Assembly (NCBI RefSeq): GCF_963675165.1 | Contig: NC_087390.1 | Span: 4,287,301 to 4,351,300 of the forward strand | Length of the DNA stretch: 64,000 nt | Direction of reading: 5' to 3' | Source of the DNA: Halichondria panicea | Lineage: Eukaryota; Porifera; Demospongiae; Suberitida; Halichondriidae | Shown: positions 19,151 to 53,700 of the stretch, one piece after another | How the letters are laid out: each line of letters starts with the position of its first letter | Position numbering within the stretch: position 1 is the first letter of the stretch | Made by a program: the position numbers and the translations under genes | Notes under the pieces: generated by a model | Told to the model about the DNA's origin: nothing | Databases searched by the model: none | Seen by the model: the letters and a program-made list of their open reading frames with translations, nothing else

Positions 19151-22100
19151 TCATTTGCTCTTGTACTCCAGCTGATTTCTTAGAATCATGTCTAGCTTCT
19201 CATTGGTCGTCAAGCTCTGTTCTGAAAATGAGCCCCTGCACAAATAAATATATTTATAATGAAAGCACCGCGGGTGCCAAAGCTACACACATTATAATAT
19301 TATTATCATGATGAACATTTTGCTTTAATTAACTTTCACTACTGTATACCTCGCTTGCGCATGCGTACCGAGGCATAATGCAATAAGGCAAACTAAACAT
19401 GCATGAATATTATACGGAATAACGGAACTGTTTACAGAACAAATAAGCTAATTAGATCTACATGATTGTTGTACTAACCTCAAGTCGTCCAAAACACTGC
19501 TATGCTGGTTGACAATTTTCCGAGTTTTGAGTGTGATTCTGTGTATGTTGGTAATGGAGGTATTTTCCAATTTCTCAACATGCTCTGCACAGAGAAAAAG
19601 TGAAAAATCATACTCGTGTACATAATTAAAACTAACTTTGAGGGTTTGTCCATTTTTCTTCAGACTCGTAAAAATCAGTGAGACATTTCTACAGACAAAG
19701 CAAAGGAATTGTTAAAACTATACTAGTATAATTATATAAATATGATAATTATAGCAAAGACTAGGAGACAAGAAAGGTCAAAATGGGCCCCGTGCAGACC
19801 ACAGAGGATGCAATAGGTACACAGAAATCTTGTACATACACTCTATTTAGAGTTAGTTGGGCGGAGTCCAACCCTCTGAGAGTGGTTGGGTATCATGACA
19901 ATAATTATACGTTTTTGTACCAACTGCAGAAAACTTGCAGCCCAATCAGATTACAGCGTTCAAGGGGAACCTTACAGCTCAAATTTAGCTGAATGAGGCA
20001 ATAATTATTTCTGCCTCTGCTAAATCTTGTACATGTTGTATTACAGGCTGCAGTATCTTTCTACTTTCTCTAACAACTCTCAGTCTGGGGTCTTTCTTGC
20101 ATCCTAAAACAGTTATAGTTTATTTATATCGCACCCCTGAGCCATGCGGTTGTCAGCCACTTAAGAATAAACGATATTCATACTCTGCCGCCTCAAGTAC
20201 CAGTGGAACAAAAATGTATATTGTCATGATACCCAACCACTCGCAACAGAGGGTTGACTCCGCCCAACTAATTTAGAGCATATATATAGCTGCATGTAGA
20301 TCTACAATGTAGAAGTTTTAATAACATTTCCTTATCAACTGATGAAAAAAGGGGTGGATCTGCAATGAGGTCAGAGTTCACAAAAGCTGCTGGCAGTGTA
20401 CTAGTCGAGCGCCGCCGCCCTGCTTGAAGGAGGTCGGGAATCAAGCCTATCCACAGTTTTGTTCTGGCCTGTTACGCAATAGTATCATGAATATCATTCA
20501 TTCTATGTGGGTGCTAACCAATAGCGATGAATATCATTTATTAAAGTGGGTGTTGGCCTCGCCTCTCAGTCAATCCAACGTGTGAAAAATTCACACGTGG
20601 TACAGTTGAGTGGGTGTGATCAATCCCCTTGAGATACTGCAATCTGATTGGAGCTGGTGGAATTGTTGGATTTCCAACAACTGGAACAAACCTGTGGATA
20701 GGCTTGATTCCCGACCTCCTTCCGGGCAACGGTAGAGGGCGGCGGCGCCCGACTAGCAGTGTACATGCATGCAGCTTTGCAGCTCTTTTCTGACTCTTGT
20801 AGCTAACAAACAGCTAGTTAGTGCAAGGCTAACTCATAAGAAAGAGATGATGCTATGAAAGATTCTGAAGAGACTGCAATAACTGTGCATGTGAGTCAAA
20901 CTAGCCACAACTCAGAGAAAGAAACTTTAGTTTGCAAATCCACGAATCCAAATCCAAGCTAGAGAGTGTGCATGGCTAGAAGCCTATAGAAGCTGTTAGT
21001 TTTGCAACCGTTAAACAGTATATATACAGTTGATGTATCTTATAATTATGACCAATGCCGTCCTGTAAAAAAGTATCAATCATTGGACGTCATCCAACAT
21101 CGGACACTGATATCTTCAAAACTACACAAGGTACAGACACTATTTAAGGACCATTTTAAAGCTATTTTGTTCAAATTGCAATTCCCCAACTATTGTAGCT
21201 CTACATTAAGACATGACACTTCATGATATTGACCAGGACCTCATCCATGTCTCACATTCTCTCAGCATGGCATGCCCAGAGAGTCCTTCCAGATAGATAT
21301 CACCAGCTATATAGCTAGCATACAGTACAAGCTAGCTAGCTAGCTCATATAGATAAATTGTTACTAATATCCTTCGCATCATTGGAAAAGCGCTTCAATT
21401 CGAGTACAAAAAACCTGCAGTTGAGCATGCGCTTAAAATAAAGATACGCTTATAGTCGAGTAAGCGCTAATATTTGCTGTAGTTATGAAGATACTGCAGT
21501 GTGTCCGAGATAATTATGATGACGTCCGATGATGATACTTTATATACTCTAGTTCAAAGGCATCTCAAGTCCTACAGAAGGCTTTGTCATTGTGGCTATA
21601 GAAATCAATAAATGTTTTTCACCTTCAAATTCTTCAACACTCTCATTAATTAAAGACGCCAGAGCTGGAACAACTAGACACGCTACGAGTATCGCATACT
21701 ATACCGTAAACATCAGCTTTGATACAATGACTGTAAACTACCGTCGTTTGTAGTATATAGTTGGTATGCGGAATTTTGCTGGGACACTCACTGCATCGCA
21801 CAATCAGCTTTACCGTATCCCTCGTGTTGCTACGCCTCAAGGTATAATTATATCAATTAATATATGGGAGTTGGCCCAAATGATGACCTAGCTTTATAAT
21901 AATTATTTGCTAACCAATTAAGAGGGTTATGGTTAGGTTTAGGCGTATCAATATATAGGACTACTGTTATTAGTAACAGTTGGCATGCAAAGCCTATCAT
22001 GATATTGCTCTAGCCTCTACACAGGCTCTCCTTTTTCTGTTCTTTATGACAATCGTTCAATAAGATAAAATACGGTATTAATTGGAGGAATAAAGAAAGA

Positions 22101-25100
22101 AATAGACGTAGAGTTAGGAAAAAGGAGAGCCTGTATCGGGAAGTCGCGTGAGGGTAAAAGGGTGGTAGAAGGGTGAAAATGAGCGGGGGCATGCTGAGCT
22201 AGAGATGTTGGACTGCCCACGCAGAGATCTATGACTAATAAAACTTTGCCTGCAGCAAGCTGGACATGGACTTGGAACTGGAAGTTTGCAAGCACTGTAG
22301 CTAGCTATACCTTAGGCTTAGCTAGATGATCTACTAGTTATGTGTTCAGATTCTATCAGACAATCACCTTTTCTTGTGTCTTTCTACATGCTATTATATA
22401 GTCTACTGAGATCAAGAATAGCTTAGTCATCATTATCATATAGCAGGTAGCTACTGCCACCAGAGCTGGCCACGCTGGTTCTCTGATCTGACTTGCAGCA
22501 CAGCTTGGTGGTTGTCTCAGTACAGTCTTATTAACTCTGAATGCGTGGGAGAATATCTTACGTCACGATTGTGGGCTACATATCGCCCACGTTCATAAAA
22601 ATCCTTGTGGATCACGCGATTTCCCAAACCAGGCCTTACTTTTCTTAACTGTACACCCATTTCTTTCTTTGCTGCCTTACTAATGATTTATGGATAAACA
22701 GTGACAACAGCAAGAAAAAGTAAGGCCTGGGATCGAGGCTAATATTGCTCACCAAGAAAGAGAGTCCAGTTCTCTCAATGCTGATTATGGTCCTAGCTCT
22801 ATTGATAGCCAGTGAGCGCTGTGCATCTCCTTGCACGTTGGAGAAAGTGTCGGACATCTGAGCAATCAGCAAGTTGAGCATGATCACCTCCAGCGTAAAC
22901 AGGAAGATCAGGTACGTCACTACACCCAGCCAACTAATGTTGGAAAATCGTTAACGAGCACTATAAGTTAAAATTAATACTATACTGTCCAACCAAATCC
23001 TTAATTTTATGTCGTAATTCAAATCTTCAAAACTAGGTATGGATCTAAGTTGACTTACCCAAAGCCGTCTGGTCCAAAGTAGGTGAGAAAGTTTTGACCC
23101 TCAACGGCAATTCTTACTCCAGTGAAAAACACTCGGTAGTAGGTTCTATACAATTATTATATGTGGGCGTAATCTTGGTAGAGTAAGATGGAGCAAAAAT
23201 GGCATCTAGAATATACTTCATGGACTGCATGTGGCAGTTAATGAAGTTTACAAACGTACATGTAGGGATATGACAAATGTCAACTTGATAATTTGTATGG
23301 TAATAAAACTATTTACCCACCTTGTCTCATCAGGGTTGATATCGAGGCTAGTCTGAAATGGAATTGTCGATGTGTTCACTGCATCTTGAACTTGAGCTGC
23401 TGTCAGATTGAATGTATTTAGAGCTGCTTCAACCACCGTGAAGTTACAGACTGGGGTGATTAGAGTCGGAGTAACTACCTCTTGTCTTAAAGCAAAATAG
23501 AAGCCACCCGTGAAGATGAACAGTATAACGATAAGGGTACAAATGAAGGGGACAAGATCTCTTTGGATGATCAGGTACAGGATTTGTATGTACTTCCCAA
23601 ATATCCTGTCAGGGGTGTGTGTGCGTGTATGTGTGCATTGATCACTTACACGTGCTTGAAACTATGACAATTATAATTACATCCTATACATCCTTGCTTT
23701 TAAAATGTGCTTCGTGACATAAATAATTACCCAAGCTACCTCTAAGGACATTAACACTTTACCTAGTCTCGCACCAGCCCCAATTAAAAATTGGGTCTGG
23801 AGAACTTCCTATCAAAGTTGTGCACCCTAAGTGGCTAATACCGGCTAATACCGGGTAGTAAACAGACAAATAATATTACGGTGGAACCTCCGAATAACAA
23901 ACAAGTTGGTGCAGGAGGTTTTGTCCATTATTTGGAGGTGTTCTTTATTAAAAAGGTTATACCATATAACATATCAAAACATTTTGTCAAATGTATGTAA
24001 AAAATATGTTAAAGTTGTCATCAAACATTAAATTTTTTTATATTAGTTATACCCTAAAATTAATGTGTTTATGTAGCTAGGGACAATAATGACTTCAAAA
24101 TATACATTATAATGAAAGCACCGCGGGTGCTGATGCCTCGGTGGAGATGCCAAAGCTACATAACATAAAGCTACTAATACACATGACAGGGGCAGATCCA
24201 GGATTCTTGATAGGGGGGAGGAGCTAAAAATATTTTACTAAAAAAAGGTCGTCTGTTTTTCAAGCACAATGTGTTTCTTGCGTGACTCATCAATAATTGT
24301 TCATGCTCAGTAATAAACTGAGTGTGGCCATGATAATGTAACCATAGCTACGTGCTATCCAGTGCATGCAGTGAGTGGGATAGCTAGCTCTAGATTCTAT
24401 TTTTCAGGCTTGTCATCAAAGCCAGGGGGGTGCTCAAGCCCCCAAAGCTCCCCACTGGATCCGCCACTGCATGATGAATTTTGCATGCTGCATGCAAACT
24501 CAAAGAGTGGGTAATGATCGACCATGTTTGTTGTTAAAAACGATCGATGCCAAAGTTCAAGTCTAGCTAGCTGCCAAGCAGCAGAGCCTTGCAGCTCTCT
24601 TCTCATTTCTGCTACCAATAGCTAGCGTTCTAGTGCATAGTTAACTACTAAGTAGAGTAGCAACACTCGGTAAACAAGTTTGGCTACGTGCTCTTCTGAA
24701 AAGGCTGCAATGGCATTCCAAGTAAGCAAAACTAGGCATAACTCGAGAACGAAGCATTATTTTGCAAATCCACAAATTAAAAATCAAGAAAACATGACTA
24801 GAAGCCTAATATATAGAAAGTCTTACTTGCACTTAACTTCATTGATCCTTGAGCAGCTGTAGCAGTCTACACACACACACACACACTACATGTACCGTAT
24901 ACCTCGCTTGCGCATGCGCACCGAGGCATAATTATGAATAAGTATACATGTAGCCATAGTCTTTGGAGACAGATTAACAACCACAAATTAATTGTTACTA
25001 CAGATGTTAGCAAATATCGAATGGAAGTGGACTGTCATCACAAGACTGAAAAAATGGTGAACTGCAGCAGGCTGATCTGAACTGTGCATGCATGCATAGA

Positions 25101-44746: not shown

Positions 44747-47700
44747 TCATTTGCTCTTGCACTCCAGCTGATTTCTTAGAATCATGTCTAGCTTTTCATT
44801 GGTCGTCAAGCTCTGCTCTGAAAATGCGCCCCTGCACAACAAATATTTAGCAAACAGGCAATTAAACTACATGCATGAATAATTTATTACGGAATAACGG
44901 AATTGTTGACAAAACATACTCACCTCAAGTCGTCTAAAACACTGCTATGCTGGTTGACAATTTTCCGAGTTTTGAGTGTGATTCTGTGTATGTTGGTAAT
45001 GGAGGTATTTTCCAATTTCTCAATATGCTCTGCATGGGGAACATTGAAATCATACTCTATATACATGTACATAATTATAACTAACTTAGAGGGTTTGTCC
45101 ACTTTTCTTCAGACTCATAAAAATCAGTTAGACATTTCTACAGACAATAAAACAAGATTAAAGGGTGATTAATACTATCATAACTAGTGTTCAAGCTGGC
45201 GCTGTGCTAATGCCTCTCGCCATGTTTGCTTTCGCTCAAAAGTATTAGAGTGTTATATTAGTTTTTATAATGAATTTTATATTAAAGTTAGCTTATCTAT
45301 ATAAAGTCACTGAGAAGAAAATACTTATTTACATGCATCTATTGTTGTTATTTATGGCTTACCAGGACCTCAAGAAAGAAGAAAATTGATTCTTCCAGGA
45401 TCTGTAGTTCAGTGTATATAATATCTAAGAAGAAAAGACCTGTGTACATGCATATTGTTATCTATATTGTTATATGGTAGTGTTTTGTGGCTTACCAGGC
45501 CCTCAAGACAAAGATGATTCTGCCAGGAGGATCTGGGGATCTGGATATTATTTTCTCACACATGGGGAATGAGCGCGCATGCGCATTACATCCACAGGAA
45601 TAATTAAAGGGTGTGTCCAAAGAGATCCACAAATGGCTACTGCTAGCTAGCTAGCTAGCTGTTTTAACAGATATTTTCTGAGTATTGTAGCTAACAAAAA
45701 GCTAGCGCTTTAGTGCAAGGCTAACTCATATGTTGAATAGAAAGTTTGTGCGGACAGATGATGCTATGAAAGATTCTGAAGAGACTGCAACAGCCTTCAA
45801 TGTGAGTCAAACTAGCCATAACTTGAGAAAGAAGCTTTAGTTTGCTAATCCACGAATCAAAATCCAAGAGAACGTGGCTAGAAGCCTATAGAAGCTGTTA
45901 GCTTTCGTCGCATTGCAACCGTTGAGCAGTTACAGCTGGAACAGACACACAGACACACAGACATACAGACACACAGACACACACACAGTCAGCTTTACCG
46001 TATCCCTCGTGCGGCTACGCCTCGAGGCATAATTACCGTATGCAGCGGAGTTGGAATGTACTCACTCCCGGACTCATTCGAAATAGTACAGTGTTATGAG
46101 ATAACGTGGATCCCCTATAATACCCGATTTATAATTGCCTTAAAACTATACTACTGTTATAGCTGCTCAAGATCAATGAAGTGCAAGAAGAGGCTTCTAA
46201 ACGTTTTTTTATCATAATTATATAGCTACAGTATAGCCCTTAAATAAAACGCTCCCGTTCTGTTTTTAAAACCTCTATTTAAACGCTAGTTTATCGCAGA
46301 AAGTACGTATCTCAGTGGAAATAATTATAAGTATACCGGGTAATTTTCGGGGGCAAAATATTCGTGGTTGAACAATATCTACAGTAGACTCTCGCTACTG
46401 GAGTTTGCAGAATCTTTGCAACACATGAATAAAAGTGTTGAGCACTGTGGTTCCTTATGTGGGAAATGCTCATACATTTAAGTAGTAAAACAGACCACAG
46501 TGTGTACACAAAATCCATATAAGGAACGGGTAACGCTCTACGCTTTTACTGGTGTGTTGCAAAGACTCTGCAAACTCCAGTATTCCGGCTCTCTGAAGTA
46601 CGTCCACCTCGATATACCGGCCATTTGGCTTGGCACGGAATGCTAGCTATATGTTTACTGCACAAAACTCACCCTGAAGTACGGCCGGCCACTCGCTATT
46701 CCGTTTACCGGCCAGTGCTGGCTGTCCCAAACAAGGTTTTCAATGTAATTTTATATGTATATTATTACGGCCGGATATGACGTTTTGGGTGTGGTTTAGC
46801 AAATAAAATTGGATTACACTTAAATAGAGAACAGAATGATTCATTATCCTACATTATCCTCGAGACAAGAACCGCAAAAGTAGTCATTAGATTCGAGGTA
46901 AGGTCGTTTTTAAGCCGCGGCTATTTCCTGAGCTGCAGCCACCTCGCTATTCCGGCCAAGCTGCATGGTCCCAAGGGTGACCGGATTAACGAGAGTCTAC
47001 TGTAAATACATGTATTTAGTTCGAGGTTGCTGCTCGCACTGCAGGTAAAGGTAGTCAAGGTCGCTTCATTCGTGGGTAAATATTCGTGGTCCAGTGTTCA
47101 ACCACAAAAACCACGAATATTAATTTTTTAGCCCCGGGAAATTACCAGCTATAATTATACGGTATAGCAAAGCCTAGGAGACAAGAAAGGTCAATATGAG
47201 CCCCAGACCATGCACGGTCCAATGGAGGATACATGCTCTGCAATAATATTATAGGTATACATAATTATACACTCCATTTACAGTATGATTATATAGCTGC
47301 ACTTTTATCAACAAAACAATTATTGAGTTTCCAAATTTTGTTGTCGGTTCAGAACACTCACACATAATTATAGATTATGTGAGTTGGCCCAACATGATGG
47401 CCTATCATGACCGATACTGATTAATTTTTGCTCATGGTATTATTTTGCTCACCAATTAAGAGAGGGTTAGGGTTAGGTTAAGGCATATCATGATATTAAT
47501 TTTGCTCACCAAGACAGTGAGTCCAGTTTTCTCAATGCTGATTATGGTCCTGGCTTTATTGATAGCCAGTGAGCGCTGAGCATCTCCTTGCACGTTGGAG
47601 AAAGTGTCGGACATCTGAGCAATCAGCAAGTTGAGCATGACCACCTCCAGCGTGAACAGGAAGATCAGGTACGTCACTACACCCAGCCAACTAATATTGA

Positions 47701-50700: not shown

Positions 50701-53700
50701 TAAGATCCAAGAAAATGACTAGAAGCCTATAGAAACTCTTACTTGCACTTGATTCATCTTTGAGCAGCTGTAGCAGTCTACACACACACACACACAGACA
50801 CACAAACACACTATATATATACCGTATACCTCGCTTGCGCATGTGCACCGAGGCATAATAATTATGACTGTACTTTTATTGTATAATTATGCACTAAGTT
50901 GTTTAATGCACACTTATCATTAGCCTCGTCCCCAGGCTTCTTGTTCTTGTCTAGCTCTCAATATAATTATAATAGCTAGAGATGATGGGAGGCACTAAAA
51001 AGGATATGATGAACGTGAAAAAAAAAGCCTGGTATGTGAAGTTGCGTGAGGCCTTGTGAAGGAGGCTAGTAGCTTAGTAGCTACCTGCTAGATGATAATG
51101 ATGACTAAGCTATTAGTCTAGCAGATCTATAGCTCAGCATGGCACAACACAACTGTATAGATCAATAAAAATAATCTGAATATAATCTAGTTAGAACTTG
51201 GTACAATCTAGTACTAGCTTGTATAACACATTAAACTGCTTGCCAATTCCAAGTCTATGGCCGTGTCCACCAGTAGTCCGGCACACAAGTTATTAGTCAT
51301 AGATCGAGGTGGGCTGCCCAATATCTCAATCTCTACATGTCCATGCTCAATTTCACCCTTCTACCACCCTTCTTCTGACATGCACGCGACTTTGCATACT
51401 ATAGGCTCTTAACTTTACCTCTATTTCTCTCCAATTAATACCGTTATTGAATGATTGTGATAAAGAACAGAAAAAGGACAGCCTGGGAACAAGGCTAACT
51501 TATCATCAAAACAACACACACAAAAAGCTGAATACAGATCAAACTGTACACCACGTGGGAGAATGTATTAGAGTACACGTAGCCTATATACCGTGTATAT
51601 AGCTGGTAATTTCCGGGGGACAAAATAGTTGTGGTTTTTGTGGTTGGAGCTCAGATCACGAATATTTTATCCACCCTTTACCTGCAGTGCAAGCAGCAAC
51701 AACGAAAATATATCTACGAAGTGACTAAAATAATATTGTTCAACCACAATTGTTTTGCCCCCCGAAAATTACTGGCTATACATAGGGGCGTAGGGCAGGA
51801 ATTCCAGGAAGGGGGGATTAGTTAGAGGGTGCAATGCACCTGGTTCTGGCTGCTAATGTGGCATTGATTCACAGTGCAGTACGCATGTGCAAGATCTCTT
51901 AGTTTTGCCACATCCTTTATTTGTGTAGAACTATTGTTTGCTAGCTAGCTAGCTAAAGAAGCTGCTGCACTGAAGTATCAAGTTACTATGGTGAGCCTTT
52001 TGTTTCAAAATGGCGATACAAAATACCATGTGTTGGTGCTCTGCGATGTGTTTTATCAACTCGATTATCGACTTCATCTGGTAGGGATCGACTCGATGTC
52101 AACTCGACTTCTTCTGGTAAGGATCGACTCGATCGATTGGGATTAGCCTCGATTCCAGGCCCTGAGTTTCTAGGGCAGCCTGGAATCGAGGCTATCTACG
52201 GCTGCACAACGCAGAACAAATGCTCAGATCTGAAACATAGCAAGTAAGTTGCTGTGACCTCCTGCAGGCGTGCCTGGAAGGTCCCCATCTGAAACTGTAA
52301 GCGTGCCTGTGGCCTCAAGAGTCTCTGCATGTGTCTTGTCTGAGCATTTGTTCTGCGTTGTGCAGCATAGCCTCGATTCCAGGCCGCCCTAGAAACTCAG
52401 GGCCTGCATGGAATCGAGGCTAATCCTGATCGATCGAGTCGATCCTTACCACTGCAGGCGTGCCTGTGGCCTCAAGAGACTCTGTGTCTTGTCTGAGCCT
52501 TTGTTGCTATACATGTACTAGAAACGAAGCGGCGCTGGAATCGTAGCTACCATGCAAATTAGAGTCGATATCGAGTTGATAAAACACATCGAGTCGATCC
52601 CTACCAAAGGAAGTCGATAATCGAGTTGATAAAACACATCAAGTCGATCCCTACCAGATGAAGTCAATAATCGAGTTGATAAAACACATCGAGTCGATCC
52701 CTAACAGATGAAGTCGATAAAATCGAGTTGATAAAATAAATCAAGTCGATTTATCCTTCCGGTTTGGGACACACACGCATAGTATTTTGTATCGCCATTT
52801 TGAAACAAAAGGCTCACCATAAGTTACTAGCTAGCTCTTGGGCATGCTGATTGTGCCAATAATCTGCATATAGCTCAGGCTCAAAAGTTGCACAGAGAAG
52901 GTGGGGCTCCTGTTGGTACTTTTGCAGAGGAAGGGGGGGCTCCAGCCGCCAAAGCCTTGCCCGTCCCTACGCCCCTACTACACGGTAATTTATGAATGCT
53001 GGTGCACTCGAATGGGCTCTCGATCGGTTACGTATAGTGGAACCTCCATAAAACGGACACAATTGGGGAACAATAGAGAGGTATCGATTGCCAACCACAT
53101 GTATACTCCGAGTCAATTCCTGCTACAAATGAATCTTGGAGCTGCTAATACCGGGTGTGGTTGTCCGGCTGCTCGTTATATGGAGTAGAGAGGTGGTCGC
53201 TCCTGAGGTTGCTTTACATTGAAGTCATTGCTCTTGGCTGTTTTATAATGTGTGGTTGCTCTTCGGAGGTGGTCGTCAATGGAGGTTCCACTGTAGTACG
53301 AGGCGAATTAGCACACACCCTAGGTGTGTGTTCTAAACATTCCTTAGTGTTGGCTGTTACATGCACTACATGTACATAACCTTTAGGTAGGTTTTATAAT
53401 TCAAATCAGTGGCGTAAGAAGTGGGCTGGAGCCCCCCCCTTGTTGGAGAGCAATGTTTAGCTTGAACTGTTGAGTTAGCTTAGCTACAGCATGCTGGATG
53501 CAGCCAGCTAGCTGTAAATTACTTTCAATGATGGGCTAGGTTTTGAAAGTCTAAAGTGCAAAGTGATAGATCTACCGCAGAGATAATGATTAATCTATGA
53601 GCCTAGTATCGAATTCTAGCCTCTTTCAGTCTTTGCAAGAATACGAAGTTGGGGAGGGCGTGGCCAGACTACTATGAGCCCCCCTTGCAAAAAATCATCT

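What the first reader, a model, noticed from the sequence alone, without database searches (positions are those of the whole stretch)
22002..22753. A transposon hit a splice donor and its target duplication rebuilt it; the paralogue keeps the empty site
The 731-bp TAGCCTCG element in gene B is flanked by ATATTGCTC. On the minus strand the right copy forms part of the exon 12 donor GTGAGC. The same place in gene C (about 47494-47512) reads TATCATGATATTAATTTTGC then TCACC without the element. So the insertion point was within a few bases of the exon, yet the donor survives because of the 9-bp duplication. Splice-site repair by target duplication is rarely this legible.
Basis: seen in the sequence. 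Interest (0 to 1): 0.8.

Follow-up and report, generated by a model that had tools for sequence, protein, structure and literature searches.

The report
Small transposon beside a splice donor
A short DNA transposon without a transposase landed in an existing intron about eleven bases past a splice site and left that site's sequence unharmed; the nine-base duplication that goes with it is what such elements normally make, so the case is tidy but ordinary.

Summary
A 731-bp element (22011-22741) is flanked by exact 9-bp repeats ATATTGCTC; the right copy supplies intron positions +3 to +11 after exon 12 of gene B, an ion-channel-like gene on the minus strand. The GT lies outside the repeat. The element belongs to a recently mobile non-autonomous family: of 40 copies examined, 37 keep both ends and 36 of these have a perfect 9-bp duplication. 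Gene C lacks the element but is not a base-exact empty site. 'Rebuilt donor' is half true: under the usual 5'-overhang mechanism (not tested) one nick fell inside the donor and gap filling re-copied +3 to +11. That happens at every such insertion, and the donor hexamer is the same in gene C. Nor is it the clearest case: one of the 30 copies first fetched has its duplication exactly on intron +1 to +9 of an OPA1-like dynamin copy, with four element-free paralogues, although that gene copy may be decayed. GTRAGT is not enriched at element ends: 9 matches among 3558 ends, 8.8-9.3 expected. RNA use was not testable.

The parts
22002..22010 (.). left (intron-distal) copy of the 9-bp target duplication, ATATTGCTC
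   Evidence: exact direct repeat
22011..22741 (+). 731-bp inverted-repeat element; ends TAGCCTCTACACAGG.. / ..CCTGGGATCGAGGCTA; longest ORF wholly inside it 83 aa
   Evidence: family members, ends and duplications
22021..22134 (.). left terminal foldback: arms 22021-22037 and 22118-22134, 17 nt, 100% complementary
   Evidence: (I4)
22629..22730 (.). right terminal foldback: arms 22629-22652 and 22707-22730, 24 nt, 83% complementary
   Evidence: (I3)
22742..22750 (.). right (exon-side) copy of the 9-bp target duplication; on the minus strand GAGCAATAT = intron +3 to +11
22747..22752 (-). exon 12 splice donor GTGAGC of gene B; the GT is at 22751-22752, outside the duplication
22753..22933 (-). 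exon 12 of gene B (ion-channel-like), ends ..GLSFL; boundaries read from AG/GT and the alignment with C, A and D
   Evidence: Pfam Ion_trans on joined exon pieces
47493..47510 (-). same place in gene C without the element; the donor hexamer GTGAGC is identical, 6 bp differ in the target

Best explanation
Ordinary insertion of a non-autonomous, TIR-bearing DNA transposon (MITE-like) with a 9-bp staggered target cut, into an already existing intron of gene B, after the B/C duplication. The target was intron positions +3 to +11, so after gap filling the exon keeps its own GTGAGCAATAT and the element begins at +12. The donor survived because the insertion is downstream of the donor hexamer once the stagger is filled in, as it is for every insertion of this kind. 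Insertions that spoil a donor are expected to be lost, so survivors look like this one. Shown: ends, duplication, family behaviour, absence from C, open coding pieces. Inferred: 5'-overhang chemistry (sense strand nicked between +2 and +3, and +3 to +11 re-copied from the antisense strand), normal use of the donor, and selection against the damaging alternatives.
For: 36 of 37 both-ended copies (40 examined) carry a perfect 9-bp duplication, at 33 of 34 distinct sites. Some copies at different sites are identical apart from gaps, so the family moved recently. The B copy is up to 98.5% identical to other copies, median 97.6%, gaps ignored, while B and C coding pieces differ by dS 0.087, which fits insertion after duplication. 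The intron exists without the element in A (58 nt) and C (exons 12 and 13 both read); D has a donor-like GT at the same place. The six coding pieces of B used from exons 10-14 are open, with dN/dS about 0.42 over 267 codons. The native donor has the best U1 duplex energy of the 57 GT sites scored in 21700-22760. GTRAGT at element ends matches the chance count: 9 seen, 8.8-9.3 expected.
Against: C is not a base-exact empty site: there is a 6-bp indel in the target and about 45-50 extra bp in B beside it, so some local change besides the element took place. dN/dS of 0.42 is only mild constraint, and exon 11 has 6 nonsynonymous and no synonymous changes. By plain matches to CAGGTAAGT the native donor scores 5, while three sites inside the element score 6. 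No transposase could be tied to the family.
Confidence: 0.93

Rival explanations
1. The target duplication acted as a special splice-site repair: without it the donor would have been lost, so the case is a distinct, rare repair event.
For: One target boundary (+2/+3) does fall inside the donor hexamer, so under the 5'-overhang model +3 to +11 on the sense strand were re-copied.
Against: 36 of 37 both-ended copies have the same kind of 9-bp duplication and the other has it with one mismatch, so there is no version without it to compare with. The donor is unchanged relative to C. A second donor case turned up among the 30 copies first fetched.
Confidence: 0.04
2. Introner: the element family makes introns, using the duplicated target as a splice site.
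For: TIR elements with duplications of 3-9 bp that lend splice sites are described as introners (passages of PMC9860276). The L030 duplication is a complete donor hexamer.
Against: The intron exists without the element in genes A and C. In the dynamin cluster the four fetched paralogues have the donor (one with a base change) without the element, and in L051 the intron closes at TTACAG before the in-phase next exon.
Confidence: 0.02
3. The family prefers splice donors or exon edges as targets.
For: Two of 34 distinct sites are known to lie within 11 nt after an exon, one of them being the given case; the other 32 were not checked systematically for exons.
Against: GTRAGT within 9 bp of a TAGCCTCGNNCCCAGG end: 9 among 3558 ends, against 8.8-9.3 expected from flank and window frequencies. 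By eye one of those nine has a readable exon. The test covers related families with that end and would not catch donors such as GTGAGC.
Confidence: 0.03

Closest known systems
MITEs / non-autonomous TIR DNA transposons with 9-bp target duplications (Mutator-like elements are the usual 9-bp makers; recalled)
   Same: no ORF over 83 aa wholly inside, inverted ends, exact 9-bp target duplication, many near-identical copies
   Different: no transposase or autonomous partner was linked; each end is itself a foldback hairpin, and left and right ends differ after TAGCCTC
Introners (PMC9860276, passages read)
   Same: TIR element whose target duplication overlaps splice-site sequence
   Different: here the intron pre-exists and no intron is gained

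Membership tests
MITE-like non-autonomous TIR transposon | terminal inverted repeats | tested here: met
   TAGCCTC/GAGGCTA ends plus imperfect subterminal inverted repeats
MITE-like non-autonomous TIR transposon | target duplication of fixed length | tested here: met
   9 bp, perfect in 36 of 37 both-ended copies of 40 examined
MITE-like non-autonomous TIR transposon | many copies and no transposase inside | tested here: met
   40 copies scored out of 776 first-look candidates; in the B copy the longest ORF wholly inside is 83 aa; no domain scan of these ORFs was run
Mutator-like (MULE) superfamily | mobilised by a MULE transposase with matching ends | tested here: inconclusive
   31 MULE-domain matches in the genome. 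Of six fetched, four (L044, L045, L046, L049) have TAGCCTC within about 1.5 kb; in L044, L046 and L049 these are separate short hairpins with their own 9-bp repeats, in L045 only the start of one. None was shown to be the transposon's own end
Introner | creates a new intron | tested here: not met
   intron present without the element in paralogues

The most novel reading that the evidence does not exclude
A 9-bp stagger is about as long as the donor motif, so this family may be tolerated at 5' splice sites more often than elements with shorter duplications, and copies such as the dynamin one, which duplicate a whole donor (GTAAGTGCT on both sides of 774 bp), may give twin donors and occasional exonisation.
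Probability: 0.08. Interest if true: 0.35.

Novelty: new member of a known kind. Interest (0 to 1): 0.18.

Why it matters
It is a neat teaching example of how staggered insertion keeps a neighbouring splice site, and the dynamin cluster of the same genome supplies a geometrically cleaner one. It opens no new question about splicing or transposition.

Tried and rejected
Donor preference of the family: rejected, with 9 GTRAGT matches among 3558 ends against 8.8-9.3 expected; a looser end motif gave 93 matches, which I did not use because I expect chance TAGCCTC sites to dominate it. Introner reading: rejected. Masking of the donor by RNA folding: mean unpaired probability of donor -3 to +6 is 0.33 with the element, 0.27 with the flanks joined, 0.25 in C, so no sign of it. 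MULE partner: inconclusive. Next exon of the dynamin copy that holds L030: not found in the 4.9 kb fetched downstream (L054). Literature, all seen as listings except where said: (four terms with 'exon-intron boundary') 0 papers; (introner terms) 3; ('donor site', 'MITE' and others) 9; (sponge MITE terms, at least three of four) 250, of which 10 listed, none of these ten with 'sponge genome'; ('wild-type splicing' and others, at least three of four) 1; ('restored the splice') 0. I read passages of PMC9860276 only. I make no claim that such cases are absent from print.

Full report
Observation. The element occupies 22011-22741 and is flanked on both sides by ATATTGCTC (22002-22010, 22742-22750), with no further matching base on either side. 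Its ends are inverted (TAGCCTC / GAGGCTA), but they differ after the seventh base: the left end reads TAGCCTCTACACAGG, the right end read inwards TAGCCTCGATCCCAGG. Each end also folds on itself: a 17-nt perfect hairpin on the left and a 24-nt imperfect one on the right. The longest ORF wholly inside is 83 aa.

Family. A search of the window's own genome scored 40 copies over (nearly) the full length, from 776 first-look candidates, so counts are lower bounds. I read the ends of all 40: 30, ten. Three lack one end (L025, C14:4537061, C16:4323410). Of the 37 others, 36 have a perfect 9-bp duplication, and L004 has one mismatch. Four copies (L010, L020, L027, C7:2765051) share the duplication GGCTGGAGG and the same flanks and count as one site, which leaves 33 of 34 distinct sites. 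With gaps ignored, several copies at different sites are identical (for example L009, L016, L017, L018; and L012, L013, L014), so the family moved recently. The B copy is at most 98.5% like another of the 30, median 97.6%. At 731 bp it is the shortest both-ended copy of those (others 733-785), so gapped identities are lower, 88-93%.

Donor geometry. On the minus strand exon 12 ends TTCTTG|GTGAGCAATAT. The duplication is GAGCAATAT, intron +3 to +11; the GT is outside it. By the usual 5'-overhang scheme (established knowledge, not tested here) the sense strand was nicked between +2 and +3 and the antisense strand between +11 and +12, so +3 to +11 on the exon side were re-copied from the antisense strand. 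It is the normal end of every such insertion, and the hexamer is the same in gene C.

Gene C. C has no element, and B and C match on both sides: the intronic flank scores 68 against at most 26 in 500 shuffles. It is not a base-exact empty site. C reads GAGCAAAATTAATATCATGATA where the joined flanks of B read GAGCAATATCATGATA. The global alignment shows B with about 45-50 bp more beside the insertion, and places the break differently from this short-range match. Because both duplicate copies in B lack the extra 6 bp, that difference predates the insertion or arose in C (inference). Gene A has a 58-nt intron there, with no evident match to the B or C intron.

Is B still a gene? Six coding pieces (267 codons, chosen by me from exons 10-14) are open in B and C, with dS 0.087, dN 0.036 and dN/dS about 0.42. 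Exon 11 alone has 6 nonsynonymous and 0 synonymous changes, so constraint is mild. The joined pieces match Pfam Ion_trans (30.2 bits, cut-off 25) and, below cut-off, PKD_channel. The native donor has the best U1 duplex energy of 57 GT sites scored in 21700-22760; by plain matches to the consensus it scores 5, and three sites in the element score 6. RNA use is untested.

A cleaner twin, with a caveat. Copy L030 (C3:6252326-6253099) has the duplication GTAAGTGCT directly after an exon reading QYMQNPNAIIMCIQ, which resembles OPA1-type dynamins (recalled); 10 of the 29 Dynamin_N matches of the genome lie in a cluster at C3:6.19-6.29 Mb around it. Four fetched paralogues (L050-L053) have the same exon and donor without the element; L052 differs by one base in the 9-mer, and L050 has an in-frame TAA in the exon. 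In L051 the intron runs about 545 nt from GTAAGTGCT to TTACAG and the next exon follows in phase (G|AT GGT, DGSVDAERS). So the target is exactly intron +1 to +9. Against making too much of it: no match to that next exon was found in the 4.9 kb fetched downstream of the element (L054), nor in L050, L052 or L053, which reach only 1.5-2 kb past the exon. The upstream exon of the element copy reads LVDLPEIVS where L051-L053 read LVDLPGIIS. That gene copy may be decayed, so the twin shows the geometry, not a working donor.

Chance. GTRAGT within the last 9 bp before a TAGCCTCGNNCCCAGG end was found 9 times among 3558 ends; flank and window frequencies predict 9.3 and 8.8. Those ends include related families. 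By eye one of the nine has a readable exon. There is no donor preference by this test. The 32 other distinct sites of the family were not checked systematically for nearby exons.

Class. A 9-bp duplication with long inverted ends is typical of Mutator-like elements (recalled), but no transposase could be linked. It is not an introner at these two sites, because the introns exist without it.

Noticed in passing
L030/L037 (G000 C3:6252317-6253108): Second insertion of the same family with its 9-bp duplication GTAAGTGCT exactly on intron +1 to +9 of an OPA1-like dynamin copy; a full donor copy now stands at both ends of the element. The gene copy may be decayed.
   Followed up: yes
L044 about 2884-2919, L046 about 2902-2937, L049 about 231-332: Short hairpins with TAGCCTC/GAGGCTA ends (36 bp in L044 and L046) flanked by the 9-bp repeat GGAAGTTGC beside MULE-domain loci; L049 has two in a row with three copies of the repeat. 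Possibly minimal elements of the same kind.
   Followed up: partly
G000 C15:2730948-2731724: Copy with duplication TAATTGCAG, which looks like a splice acceptor; whether an exon follows was not checked.
   Followed up: no
L050 (G000 C3:6245400-6248400): Dynamin paralogue whose exon reads TAA where the three others read TGC, so probably a decayed copy.
   Followed up: partly
window 21951-22001: About 45-50 bp in the gene B intron next to the element, with a small palindrome ACTGTTATTAGTAACAGT, absent from gene C; may be another small insertion or a loss in C.
   Followed up: partly
window 51076-51485: 68.6% similar fragment of the same element family on the other strand.
   Followed up: no
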